Below are positions 59,339 to 64,000 of a stretch of 64,000 nucleotides of DNA, piece by piece. Source of the DNA: Sycon ciliatum (Eukaryota > Porifera > Calcarea > Leucosolenida > Sycettidae); contig NC_088654.1 in the NCBI RefSeq assembly GCF_964019385.1, positions 26,429,986 to 26,493,985 on the forward strand, given 5' to 3'. The translations under genes were made by a program, and so were the position numbers. Below the pieces are notes generated by a model. That model worked only from the letters and a program-made list of their open reading frames with translations, made no database searches and was not told the origin of the DNA. How positions within the stretch are numbered: position 1 is the first letter of the stretch; every line of letters starts with the position of its first letter.

Positions 59339-60402
59339 ACACACACACACACACACACACACACACACACACACACACACACACACACACACACACACAC
59401 ACACACACACACACACACACACACACACACACACACACACACACACACACACACACACACACACACACACACACACACACACACACACACACACACACAC
59501 ACACACACACACACACACACACACACACACACACACACACACACACACACACACACACACACACACACACACACACACACACACACACACACACACACAC
59601 ACACACACACACACACACACACACACACACACACACACACACACACACACACACACACACACACACACACACACACACACACACACACACACACACACAC
59701 ACACACACACACACACACACACACACACACACACACACACACACACACACACACACACACACACACACACACACACACACACACACACACACACACACAC
59801 ACACACACACACACACACACACACACACACACACACACACACACACACACACACACACACACACACACACACACACACACACACACACACACACACACAC
59901 ACACACACACACACACACACACACACACACACACACACACACACACACACACACACACACACACACACACACACACACACACACACACACACACACACAC
60001 ACACACACACACACACACACACACACACACACACACACACACACACACACACACACACACACACACACACACACACACACACACACACACACACACACAC
60101 ACACACACACACACACACACACACACACACACACACACACACACACACACACACACACACACACACACACACACACACACACACACACACACACACACAC
60201 ACACACACACACACACACACACACACACACACACACACACACACACACACACACACACACACACACACACACACACACACACACACACACACACACACAC
60301 ACACACACACACACACACACACACACACACACACACACACACACACACACACACACACACACACACACACACACACACACACACACACACACACACACAC
60401 AC
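59339..60402. repeat. Perfect (AC)532 microsatellite, 1,064 bp
   Basis: An uninterrupted AC dinucleotide run. It directly abuts the 3' end of the LINE at 60403, so on the LINE strand it is a (GT)n 3' tail or a microsatellite target. The absence of any interruption over 1,064 bp implies recent expansion. The exact length depends on assembly accuracy. Minus-strand Cys-Val frames across it are meaningless. Confidence 0.97.
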
Positions 60403-60419
60403 CTTGGACCTTGGACGCC

Positions 60420-60434
60420 CATCGCGTAGCGATG
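60420..60434 (-). other. 3' stem-loop of the LINE
   Basis: CATCGC-GTA-GCGATG (plus strand) is a perfect 6-bp stem with a 3-nt loop, directly inside the CCTTGGACCTTGGAC end motif. The homologous position in the truncated copy (6606-6622) keeps the loop and pairing but has a different stem sequence. In CR1/L2-type LINEs a 3' stem-loop is recognised by the RT, and a similar role is inferred here. Confidence 0.55.
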
Positions 60435-60439
60435 ATGGC

Positions 60440-63400
60440 TCAGACGCGGCAGTGGGGGGCGTGCCTCCTCAGGTCCCCAATGCGGCCAAAGGGACGGCCA
60501 CATGCGCAACGGAACTCTTTCGGTCCGGGTGGAGGAGGCTGCTGACGACACAACCGCTTCCAGGTTGGGCGATCCTGGGCTTGATGGAACCATTCTCCCT
60601 CTCCGATCTGTGCCGCAGCTAGATCAGTGACAACAACGTCACGCCATCGCTTCTTCGGACCGTGGCGGGGGCGAGTGGCATATAACTCGCCAAATACCAT
60701 CTGCTGCGGAGTGCGGTGTTCCTCCATACGGGCAATGTGCCCCAGCCAGCGCAGACGATGCTGTCGGAGCAAATCGGAGATGTCAAGAGACATGCCAAAT
60801 CGCCTGCCCAATTCTGCCGATGTGAGCCTGTCCTCCCACTGCTGGATCCGCGATACACCGAGGATAGACCGAATACAGGAGCGATGGAAGACGGTCAGCC
60901 GATGGACGTGGGTAGCCTTCACAGCCCATGTCTCTGCACCGTAGAACAGAGTGCTCAGGACAAAAGCGCGATATACCGTGCACTTAATGTCGATGGATAA
61001 ACCCCGGCACCGGAAAATCGGGGTCAGGAGGCAACCAAACACACGAGATGCCTTGGCCAAGCGGGAGGTGATCTCCACGTCCAGTGACCCATCGCAACTC
61101 ACCACACTACCGAGGTAAGTAAAGCCGGAGACCATCTCCACAACTCCACCATCATCGAGGACGACATCAGGTTGTAGGTCCCCCGGGCCGACTGCTATGG
61201 CCTTTGTCTTGGCGATGCTGACAGTGAGACCCCACTGAGAGGCACAGGCGATGAACTCGTTTGCCAGGGTCTCCAGATGTTCTCTTGATGTGGTGTATAC
61301 AGCGGCATCATCAGCGAACTGGGACTCGGTAACTTGGTACGTGTTCAGTCGCGCCTTGGTTGTTCGATCCCCAACAAGCTTCCGGCCAGGGCGTGAGCGC
61401 AGGGACACGCCGGGAACAGAAGAGCGGGAACGCCAAGACGACATTACGGCAGCAAAATACAGATTGAATAGGGTGGGGGCAAGAGTACAGCCTTGGCGAA
61501 GACCATTGTTAACATATATGTCCTCCGTCAAGCGACCAGATATACGAACCCGAGCCCTCATGCCGACATGTAGGGACCGAATCAAGCTGAGAAGGGTAGG
61601 TGGAATACCGAGCTTCCCGAGGACAAGCCACAACGCCTCACGAGGTATGCTGTCATAAGCCTTCTTCAGGTCGACAAATATGACATACAGTGGCGTATCA
61701 TGTTCGATGGCCTTCTCGATTAGCTGGCGCGCCACAAACACCATGTCGACGCACCCACGTCCCTTCCTAAAACCGCACTGTGACTCAGGCAGCACATCCT
61801 CGGACAGTTCCTGAAGGCGATCCTGGATAACCCGTGCAAACAGCTTACCGACTACATCCAACAGGCTGATGCCTCGCCAATTGTCACATGACCGTAGGTC
61901 GCCTTTCTTCGGTATGGGTACAATCTCAGCGTCGCGCCACTCAGAAACAACGGAGCCACCTGCCCAAATCTGGGAAATCAGAGAATGAATACGCCGGTGG
62001 AGAGCAAGACCGCCACCCAGCACCAATTCCGGCACAATACCTGACGAGCCACCAGCCGTGCCCCTACTCATCCTCCGCATCGCAGCCATCACCTCCTCAA
62101 ATGTCGGGGCCATGTCAAGTTCATGACGCGGCTCAGCAGTAGGCATGTTATCAATGACATGCATACTAAACTGACTAGCAATGTTGAGCACTCTGTCGAA
62201 GTGTGCATGCCAACGCGTAACAAGACTTTCCGGGCTGTCAGTAAGGTGTCCGTCTCCATCATAAACCGCCGAGGGTGTGACCGTACGCCTGCCATCATCC
62301 ACTCGCTGCAATTTTCGGATGCATTTCCACCTCACACAGCCATCCCTTTGAGCACGCTCAGCATCACCGACCACCTCACGGATCCATTGTTCCTTTGCAC
62401 CACGCACCGCCCTCGCAACCGACCGCTGGGCTGATCTAAATCCGGAACGTGTCGTTTGATTGCCTGCCGACAACATTCGTTCATGGGCACGTCGCTTCGC
62501 CTCAATAAGTGGCTCCAATGCTGCCCTATTCTCCAGAAACCAGTCTGGTTGCCGCCGCCGACCATGGCCCAGTGTTCTCTCCGCTACGCTGGTGATGTCA
62601 TCACGAAGGGAATTCCAGGTCTCTTCAACACTCTGGCCACCACCGACCGCGCCACCACAGGCTGCCTCCATTGACTCTCGGTACTGCAGTAACGTATCAG
62701 GCTCACGCAGGCGATGGGTGGCATACGACCTCCGCTTAGGGACAGTGGATCTACGTTGGACGAAGTCCAGGACAAGCTTGGCCCGAACCATGTAGTGGTC
62801 AGTCCAGCACAGTGCGCCGCGGACAACACCAACGTCCTTACAGTAGCAGCAATGAGCTGTACGCATGATGACATAATCAATGAGATGCACTTGGCGAGTG
62901 GCTGGATGAGTCCATGTTCCACGCTTACTTCGTCCCTTCTTGTACCATGTATTCATTACTGACAATTGATTAGCTGCACAGAATGACAACAGCTCCTCAC
63001 CAGCCCGATTGCAATTTCCAAGGCCAAATTGGCCCAAGACACAACCCCACATCCGCTCATCCCCTGGCATGCCATCGATACGACTCACAGCGCTGTCTGC
63101 ATAGTCAGTGCTGGACCCGACGCGCGCGTTCAAATCCCCAAGGAGCACAAGAACATCTCTGGATGGGATACTGTCCACAACTCGTTGCAAGTCATCGAAA
63201 AACTTGCGTCTTACGTTCGGTGGGGCTTTACTCGTTGGAGCATAAACATTGACGATAGAGACACAGAAATCTGCGTGTCGCTTACCTCCACCAGGGAGTT
63301 TATCACCTCGCTTGGCGACAAGAAGACGAGCAGTGACAATACGCGAACTGACGGCGCTCCACTGCTCCCCTCCGCTCTTCCACATCCCGGTCACGGCGGA

Positions 63401-63733
63401 ATTCATCAAAATTCCAACTCCCTCGTTCCGGCGGCCGGGCTCACTCCCCAAAGGCAAAGGCCTCCCAGAGTGTAACAACGTACCGCTCCCAGCAGGCCAG
63501 ACGTCGCTTCCAAACCATTTCGTCTCCTGAATACCAGCAACGTCCACGCCGAACCTGCCGAGTTCCTCCACAAGAAAATCCAGTTTCCTGTCAACGGCGG
63601 TATCCGAGACATTTTTATTTTTACGGCATATTTTGGCATCACCAGCGTCCTCCACCAAGGACCGAACGTTCCATGTCGCAGTGACCAGTGTCCCCTTCGC
63701 CTTCGTCTTCCCCGTCCTCCTCGTTGTGACCAT
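60440..63733 (-). CDS. LINE endonuclease-reverse transcriptase, 1,097 aa
   Basis: Encodes the retrotransposition enzyme: target nicking by an APE-like endonuclease and target-primed reverse transcription of the element RNA. The endonuclease spans residues ~14-320 with W21-N22 of TWNVRSL, E70 of IQETKW, D200/N202 of LGDLNARVG, D286 of LIDYVI and H313 of the TDH motif. RT spans ~570-880: PIPKKGD, CGFRKGRGC, D688 of FVDLKKAYD, GLRQGCTLAP, FADD (806-809), and TKAIAV followed by FTYLGS. The C-terminal region has RWLGHIARM and GPKKRWRD and ends in a Cys/His motif (C1076, C1078, H1091, C1095). Start: ATG at 63733, with an in-frame TGA at 63737-63739, two codons upstream, excluding an earlier start. 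The frame is unbroken. The clade (RTE-, CR1- or L2-like) cannot be fixed by eye. Confidence 0.93.
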   Translation of the reverse strand: MVTTRRTGKTKAKGTLVTATWNVRSLVEDAGDAKICRKNKNVSDTAVDRKLDFLVEELGRFGVDVAGIQETKWFGSDVWPAGSGTLLHSGRPLPLGSEPGRRNEGVGILMNSAVTGMWKSGGEQWSAVSSRIVTARLLVAKRGDKLPGGGKRHADFCVSIVNVYAPTSKAPPNVRRKFFDDLQRVVDSIPSRDVLVLLGDLNARVGSSTDYADSAVSRIDGMPGDERMWGCVLGQFGLGNCNRAGEELLSFCAANQLSVMNTWYKKGRSKRGTWTHPATRQVHLIDYVIMRTAHCCYCKDVGVVRGALCWTDHYMVRAKLVLDFVQRRSTVPKRRSYATHRLREPDTLLQYRESMEAACGGAVGGGQSVEETWNSLRDDITSVAERTLGHGRRRQPDWFLENRAALEPLIEAKRRAHERMLSAGNQTTRSGFRSAQRSVARAVRGAKEQWIREVVGDAERAQRDGCVRWKCIRKLQRVDDGRRTVTPSAVYDGDGHLTDSPESLVTRWHAHFDRVLNIASQFSMHVIDNMPTAEPRHELDMAPTFEEVMAAMRRMSRGTAGGSSGIVPELVLGGGLALHRRIHSLISQIWAGGSVVSEWRDAEIVPIPKKGDLRSCDNWRGISLLDVVGKLFARVIQDRLQELSEDVLPESQCGFRKGRGCVDMVFVARQLIEKAIEHDTPLYVIFVDLKKAYDSIPREALWLVLGKLGIPPTLLSLIRSLHVGMRARVRISGRLTEDIYVNNGLRQGCTLAPTLFNLYFAAVMSSWRSRSSVPGVSLRSRPGRKLVGDRTTKARLNTYQVTESQFADDAAVYTTSREHLETLANEFIACASQWGLTVSIAKTKAIAVGPGDLQPDVVLDDGGVVEMVSGFTYLGSVVSCDGSLDVEITSRLAKASRVFGCLLTPIFRCRGLSIDIKCTVYRAFVLSTLFYGAETWAVKATHVHRLTVFHRSCIRSILGVSRIQQWEDRLTSAELGRRFGMSLDISDLLRQHRLRWLGHIARMEEHRTPQQMVFGELYATRPRHGPKKRWRDVVVTDLAAAQIGEGEWFHQAQDRPTWKRLCRQQPPPPGPKEFRCACGRPFGRIGDLRRHAPHCRV

Positions 63734-63954
63734 AATTCATTCAAATTCAAAAAACTACAAATTCCCCAAACCACTTCGTCTGACTAGTGCAATGCGTACA
63801 ACAAACCTCCCGACAGCTCGCAAGGCTGTCAGGACGGGCCACAGCAGCCAAGGCCTGGTCTCCACCATACGGCACTTGGCTGCCAAGTGTGGCTAATCCA
63901 TCATTGAGACAGAGCTCAAAAAGAGCAAACTGCCTCCTCCAACAACAAGTTGCA
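63734..63954 (-). promoter_or_regulatory. LINE 5' leader (presumed internal promoter region)
   Basis: 221 bp lie between the 5'-side (AC)n and the ORF start. APE-type LINEs normally carry an internal promoter here. I see no defined motif, so the role is inferred from position only. Confidence 0.4.
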
Positions 63955-64000
63955 ACACACACACACACACACACACACACACACACACACACACACACAC
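63955..64000. repeat. (AC)n microsatellite running off the window
   Basis: At least 46 bp of uninterrupted AC on the 5' side of the LINE, continuing beyond the window end. Confidence 0.95.

What the first reader, a model, noticed from the sequence alone, without database searches (positions are those of the whole stretch)
59339..64000. Intact LINE bounded on both sides by AC microsatellite: possible AC/GT-targeted or head-to-tail inserted retrotransposon
The complete element (60403-63954) has (AC)532 at its 3' side and at least (AC)23 at its 5' side, in the same strand sense. Some non-LTR elements are known to target microsatellites (for example Waldo, Kibi and Koshi), so insertion into a pre-existing AC/GT tract is plausible. 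Alternatives are a head-to-tail array of elements, each ending in (GT)n, or chance insertion near a microsatellite plus tail expansion.
Basis: partly seen in the sequence, partly recalled or inferred. Interest (0 to 1): 0.78.

Follow-up and report, generated by a model that had tools for sequence, protein, structure and literature searches.

The report
LINE that inserts into GT repeats
This animal genome carries a recently active jumping gene, with diverged relatives, whose copies sit almost always in GT/AC dinucleotide repeats and always in the same direction; this joins a small set of known repeat-targeting jumping genes.

Summary
The window carries an intact 3,552-bp LINE on the minus strand (60403-63954; one 1,097-aa ORF, APE-type endonuclease plus reverse transcriptase) with (AC)532 behind it and (AC)23 or more in front. 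Past 64000 lies a 5,000-N gap. In the window's own 538-Mb genome, 23 of 25 same-family copies with a resolved 5' junction start within 1 bp of a sense-strand GT run of at least 12 bp, none at AC: full-length 13/14, 5'-truncated 6/7, 5'-inverted 4/4. The truncated and inverted classes exclude a GT-headed element. Four further subfamilies, 52-62% identical in protein, show it in 17 of 17 loci, 15 independent. One copy lies in the GT stretch of a repeat whose unfilled relatives, one at window 616-672, already carry GT. (TG)n targeting is published for Togen, related to clades with restriction-like endonucleases; this element has an APE endonuclease. An RT tree was not possible. A SINE shares the 3' hairpin; its own targeting is not shown.

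The parts
59339..60402 (-). (GT)532 on the element's sense strand, 3' side; target tract and/or tail
60403..60416 (-). two terminal GTCCAAG units; family copies measured have 2 or 3
60417..60439 (-). 3' hairpin GCCATCATCGC-TAC-GCGATGGGC, seen in variants in the subfamilies examined and in a SINE
   Evidence: not more stable than shuffles
60440..63733 (-). single intact ORF, 1,097 aa
62795..63679 (-). APE-type endonuclease domain (PF03372)
   Evidence: the catalytic N, E, Y, D, N, D and H of the endonuclease motifs (motifs recalled) are the same in the six subfamily rows shown
61109..61915 (-). reverse transcriptase domain (PF00078) with FADD
60449..60508 (-). C-terminal finger-like motif CxC...H....C
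   Evidence: read by eye, no Pfam match
63734..63954 (-). 5' UTR, 221 bp, no room for an ORF1
63955..64000 (-). (GT)23 or more, 5' side target tract, cut by the window end and followed by a 5,000-N gap
616..672 (+). unfilled relative of the repeat that in locus L013 has a family copy inside its GT stretch

Best explanation
This is a young, target-specific non-LTR retrotransposon that inserts into pre-existing (GT)n/(AC)n microsatellites, with its sense strand on the GT strand. Shown: GT at the 5' edge of full-length, truncated and inverted copies, fixed orientation, a pre-existing GT stretch in unfilled relatives of one site, and the same arrangement in four diverged subfamilies. Inferred: the protein recognises the GT/AC tract and its APE endonuclease nicks the AC strand; the exposed ...CACAC-3' end primes reverse transcription at the start of the GU stretch, just behind the hairpin and GTCCAAG units; second-strand events, including twin priming, use the GT strand upstream. 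Recognition may be mainly by protein on the side that becomes the 5' flank, because the 3' side can be very short in GT (L049).
For: 23 of 25 junctions lie within 1 bp of a sense GT run of at least 12 bp, 0 of 25 at AC. Of 20,865 control positions 39 follow such a GT run and 111 an AC run; in the family's own distal flanks (600-1,200 bp upstream, 21 loci) 246 of 11,709 do for GT and 0 for AC. Genome-wide 0.16% of positions follow at least 30 bp of sense GT, against 16 of 25 junctions; binomial 5e-39. Truncated copies start inside the ORF yet in GT. The outer edge of 4 of 4 resolved inverted copies is in GT. Subfamilies B-E: 17 of 17 loci (15 independent) have a GT run of at least 10 bp within 34 bp of my 5' anchor, no AC run nearer. 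L013 lies in the GT stretch of a repeat whose unfilled copies at window 616-672 and in L017 carry GT. L049 has 39 bp of GT at 5' and only GTGT at 3'. Recent activity: nine copies over the full 1-1097 with no stop inside and 99-100% identity.
Against: Two of 25 junctions miss: L004 (48 bp away, directly behind TTTTT) and L030 (13 bp away). Two family copies could not be scored, C81 and L054, whose inverted parts run off the stretches fetched. No allelic or orthologous empty site was available; the L013 case is paralogous. No other LINE family of this genome was scored as a control. GT is also raised in the distal flanks (2.1%). Target-site duplications cannot be seen inside a microsatellite, so the nick position is inferred. 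L049's short 3' GT could be a later contraction.
Confidence: 0.88

Rival explanations
1. Target choice is made by base pairing: read-through transcripts end in long (GU)n copied from the downstream microsatellite and anneal to any exposed (AC)n strand; the endonuclease itself is not specific.
For: The LINE ends seen have at least GT directly behind the last AAG unit, mostly a longer GT stretch; the constant junction phase AAG|GT fits annealing.
Against: L049 has only GTGT before AAATG at its 3' junction, with 39 bp of GT on the 5' side; L034 of subfamily D has GTGTG before CATTGCC at 3', with GT-rich sequence at 5'. These are two loci. (L013 also measures 4 nt of pure GT, but its GT goes on after one interrupting base, so it does not count here; [quoted passage not shown]
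Confidence: 0.3
2. Head-to-tail arrays: each 5' GT tract is the (GT)n tail of an upstream element.
For: L008 and L012 sit behind a SINE end, L019 behind another LINE-like end, L018 about 350 bp behind an element end in GT-rich sequence, and L022 carries an E-like element right behind its GT. L018 and L027 hold several element ends in one direction.
Against: A motif screen of the 70 bp before each GT tract flags 2 of 24 family copies (L003, L008) and 2 of 16 others (L016, L019); L003 and L016 are ambiguous by eye, and the screen missed L012. It could not see past the available flank in L024 and left out L001 (N). In the 1.2 kb read behind the window's own gap no tail motif is seen.
Confidence: 0.06
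3. The element carries GT at its own 5' end (transcription starts in GT), so the 5' tract travels with the RNA.
For: 5' tracts are long in several full-length copies, up to 648 bp.
Against: Truncated copies that lack the 5' UTR, and inverted copies whose outer edge is internal sequence, still start in GT. Several flanking tracts carry interruptions of their own.
Confidence: 0.02

Closest known systems
Togen (fish; related to the NeSL and HERO clades)
   Same: (TG)n microsatellite-specific non-LTR retrotransposon (PMC4640811, passages)
   Different: NeSL and HERO are listed there among the clades with restriction-like endonucleases; this element has an APE-type endonuclease (Pfam showed no other endonuclease match)
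R1-clade microsatellite LINEs (Waldo (ACAY)n, Mino (AC)n; targets recalled, no call)
   Same: APE endonuclease and an AC-type repeat as target
   Different: R1-clade elements have two ORFs (recalled); here one ORF and a 221-bp 5' UTR. The endonuclease passes the cut-off of PF03372 and stays below that of PF14529
Tx1-clade Kibi and Koshi
   Same: APE endonuclease in target-specific Tx1 elements (PMC4640811, passage); microsatellite targets recalled
   Different: two ORFs and other repeats (recalled)
RTE clade, e.g. RTE-2_OV of octopus and Bov-B
   Same: [quoted passage not shown] PMC9115989, passages; the text seen puts the endonuclease at the C terminus and the finger at the N terminus; the repeat unit was not stated there)
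   Different: Bov-B has a Tn-TA insertion signature and 3' repeats that rarely match its target (PMC13295347, passages); this family sits in GT
Dong / R4
   Same: LINEs that insert into microsatellites (PMC3636483 and PMC7998251, passages)
   Different: restriction-like endonuclease; other repeats (recalled)

Membership tests
microsatellite-targeting non-LTR retrotransposon (functional class) | most independent copies begin inside the same simple repeat | tested here: met
   23 of 25 family copies; 17 of 17 loci of four other subfamilies, 15 independent
microsatellite-targeting non-LTR retrotransposon (functional class) | empty site already carries the repeat | tested here: inconclusive
   one filled site with paralogous unfilled units that carry GT (L013); no orthologous empty site available
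Togen / RLE-type (TG)n LINEs | restriction-like endonuclease, no APE | tested here: not met
   PF03372 endonuclease at aa 19-313
R1 clade (Waldo, Mino) | two ORFs (recalled) | tested here: not met
   single ORF, 221-bp 5' UTR
Tx1 clade (Kibi, Koshi) | two ORFs (recalled) | tested here: not met
   single ORF, 221-bp 5' UTR
RTE clade | single ORF with APE endonuclease and RT, short 3' UTR, microsatellite end | tested here: met
RTE clade | RT groups with RTE in a phylogeny | not testable with these tools
   no reference LINE RT sequences of the clades were at hand; the PDB search gave L1 ORF2p, R2 proteins and a few other RTs
RTE clade (Bov-B type) | Tn-TA insertion signature (PMC13295347) | tested here: not met
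   23 of 25 junctions follow GT; only L004 follows a T run

The most novel reading that the evidence does not exclude
A LINE/SINE clan builds its own niche. Diverged LINE subfamilies and an abundant SINE share one 3' hairpin that ends in (GT)n, land in GT tracts in one direction only, and keep a GT tract on both sides, so that every insertion leaves new landing space and GT tracts become hubs. The clan would then be one cause of this genome's wealth of long GT/AC tracts. The SINE part is the weakest link.
Probability: 0.22. Interest if true: 0.72.

Novelty: new variant of a known kind. Interest (0 to 1): 0.56.

Why it matters
Most reported target-specific non-LTR families belong to early-branched clades, Tx1 and R1, and the APE-type ones named are Tx1 and R1 (PMC4640811, passage). 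A single-ORF APE LINE with near-strict (GT)n choice, kept across subfamilies at 52-62% protein identity, would be an independent origin of dinucleotide targeting and a convergence with Togen. It gives a compact natural endonuclease whose preference for a simple repeat can be tested directly. It also offers a reason why GT tracts in a genome can carry stacks of elements in one direction.

Tried and rejected
Reading past 64000: a 5,000-N gap, so tandem copy or not is undecided for this locus.

SINE targeting: local SINE copies mostly sit in GT tracts, but that sample is biased because it comes from LINE flanks. The genome-wide test does not support it: 3,090 exact SINE head motifs, and on the reverse strand 87 of 1,511 have GTGTG within 10 bp upstream (forward rows repeat sites, so I use the reverse count). 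The true SINE 5' end may lie further upstream, so this is undecided.

3' hairpin: no more stable than shuffles (z +0.84). Support comes from 13 ends with 91 of 91 cells paired and two pairs with changes on both sides; 5 of 7 pairs never vary.

3' GT: 35 of the 54 exact 3' ends have GTGTGTG directly behind the second or third unit; the other 19 do not match that strict form, and some of them have short or interrupted GT (e.g. L048, L049, L050, L051).

Host identity: no COX1 match; 55 Wnt matches, hence an animal (Wnt being animal-specific is recalled); species not determined.

Clade: not settled; Pfam and PDB matches do not separate LINE clades.

Literature for an APE-type (GT)n LINE of this build: none seen in the lists of searches, some of which show only part of their hits. 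The Kojima and Fujiwara papers of 2003 and 2004 appeared only in reference lists; what I say of Waldo, Mino, Kibi and Koshi targets is recalled.

I also corrected the count of copies left out.
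Full report
OBSERVATION. The window holds (AC)532 at 59339-60402, an element at 60403-63954 and (AC)23 from 63955 to the window end. The element reads on the minus strand, so both tracts are GT in its sense direction. It has a 221-bp 5' UTR and one intact ORF of 1,097 aa (60440-63733) with an APE-type endonuclease (PF03372, 3e-11) and a reverse transcriptase (PF00078, 1.5e-39). A C-terminal finger-like motif is seen by eye only; Pfam has no match there. Behind the stop come 23 nt that can form a hairpin, two GTCCAAG units, and GT. 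In the source genome the window is followed by exactly 5,000 N; the 1.2 kb read behind them is not AC at its start and shows no tail motif.

COPIES. The window lies in a 538-Mb genome with 55 Wnt matches, hence an animal (inference). The protein search listed 44 matches, having scored 42 of 15,523 candidates, so counts are lower bounds. Nine copies over the full length have no stop inside and 99-100% identity; a tenth has one stop. The 5' UTR gives 18 matches, which are 17 copies. This is a young family.

5' JUNCTIONS. I resolved 25 family copies: all 23 distinct copies of the window's family among the matches, and L049 and L052. With the complete 5' end: 13 of 14 lie flush in sense GT; L004 is 48 bp away, behind TTTTT. 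5'-truncated: 6 of 7 within 1 bp; L030 is 13 bp away. 5'-inverted, the pattern expected from twin priming: the outer edge of 4 of 4 is in GT. None follows AC. Two family copies could not be scored: the C81 copy and L054, both inverted and running off the stretches fetched. L048-L055 are 8 of the 3' ends not yet in hand, taken in list order with three skipped. Of these, L049 and L052 entered the 25; L055 (subfamily B, truncated) is also flush in GT; L048 (B-like) lies in GT-rich sequence with interruptions; L050 and L053 (other subfamily) have no resolved boundary; L051 (other subfamily) and L054 run off.

CHANCE. In 20,865 control positions from the window and flanks far from any copy, 39 follow at least 12 bp of GT and 111 of AC. 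In the family's distal flanks, 600-1,200 bp upstream in 21 loci, 246 of 11,709 follow GT and none AC, so GT is raised nearby too, partly because some tracts are hundreds of bp long. Over the whole genome (GT)15 and (TG)15 start at 880,436 positions in the forward sense, 0.16%. For the family, 16 of 25 junctions follow at least 30 bp of pure GT, where 0.04 are expected. Long GT tracts are common in this genome, but not nearly enough. No other LINE family was scored as a control.

EMPTY SITE. L013 (truncated) lies in the GT stretch of a short repeat...AAGAGGCACCTGTGAC(GT)n...GTCACGCT. Unfilled units are found next to it, in L017, and in this window at 616-672 (GTGTGTTTGTGTGTGTGTCACGC). So this site very likely had GT before insertion. 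It is a paralogous site, not an allele.

RELATIVES. Subfamilies B (L017, L018, L019, L021), C (L016, L020), D (L031-L039) and E (L027, L041) are 52-62% identical to the window's protein. In 17 of 17 loci, of which L033, L037 and L038 look like one duplicated locus (identical flanks), a GT run of at least 10 bp lies within 34 bp of the 5' anchor that I chose from shared sequence, and no AC run is nearer. Left out: L029 (single copy of its kind, 5' end unknown; nearest GT run about 660 bp before the ORF) and L040 (N upstream). Their 3' ends share a hairpin, TATCATCGC/GCGATGGGC or variants, followed by heptamer-like units and GT. On 13 ends 91 of 91 cells of 7 pairs are paired and two pairs change on both sides; five never vary. 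The fold is not more stable than shuffles.

TAILS. Exact ends of the A/B type (GCGATGGGCGTCCAAGGTCCAAG) number 54, with 0 for the reversed pattern. Of these, 20 have two units and 15 three units directly followed by GTGTGTG (one further hit is not among the 54); 19 do not match that strict form. In 23 family ends measured, pure GT behind the last unit runs from 4 to 1,292 nt. L049 has GTGT at 3' but 39 bp of GT at 5', and L034 of subfamily D has GTGTG at 3'. This speaks for recognition of the tract on the side that becomes the 5' flank rather than for pairing with a long GU tail, but it rests on two loci and could reflect later shrinkage. L013 also measures 4 nt, but its GT goes on after one base.

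HUBS AND A SINE. GT tracts collect elements in one direction. L008 and L012 lie behind a SINE end, L019 behind another LINE-like end, L018 about 350 bp behind an element end, and L022 has an E-like element directly behind it. The SINE, about 200 bp, shares a 5' motif (GCTGTATGGTGTAGACCAGGC or part of it) with four of the five LINE subfamilies compared (A, C, D, E; not B), and the 3' hairpin (by BLAST with E; by alignment with the others). The head motif occurs 3,090 times and the hairpin pattern 4,244 times, reversed controls 0. Its targeting is not shown: 87 of 1,511 reverse-strand heads have GTGTG within 10 bp upstream.

MECHANISM. Shown: orientation, target, and the pre-existing GT stretch at one site. 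Inferred from target-primed reverse transcription as known for R2 and others: a nick in the AC strand, priming at the start of the GU stretch, hairpin and heptamers as the RNA signal, and twin priming from the GT strand. I put 0.88 on target-specific insertion into GT tracts, and about 0.5 on recognition mainly by protein rather than by tail pairing.

KNOWN KINDS. (TG)n-specific Togen families of fish are in print (PMC4640811, passages), and the same paper names Tx1 and R1 as the APE-type target-specific clades. Octopus RTE-2_OV has the same kind of build and a microsatellite at the end of its ORF (PMC9115989, passages). Bov-B LINEs end in microsatellite-like repeats but rarely lie in matching targets (PMC13295347, passages). 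A Heliconius RTE ends in a short simple repeat (PMC2887409, passages). I file it as a new variant of a known kind.

Noticed in passing
window 9032-58154: A 49-kb array of a 27-bp minisatellite (ACAAGCAGTGGAGAGCGTTTCCCCAGT, about 1,816 copies), open over long stretches in several frames, e.g. a 7,893-aa frame on the minus strand at 34481-58162.
   Followed up: no
window 58191-58451: Inverted repeat, arms of 68 nt, 93% complementary, 125 nt apart, right beside the minisatellite.
   Followed up: partly
L045:7200-7380 and other loci: SINE of about 200 bp that shares a 5' motif and the 3' hairpin with LINE subfamilies; 3,090 head motifs and 4,244 hairpin matches genome-wide.
   Followed up: partly
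L018, L027: GT-rich stretches that carry several different 3' element ends, all in one direction.
   Followed up: partly
window 64000 onward (L044): Exactly 5,000 N directly behind the window end, where the window stops inside an AC tract.
   Followed up: partly
L024: GT tract of 1,292 nt behind an inverted copy, the longest of the 23 measured.
   Followed up: no
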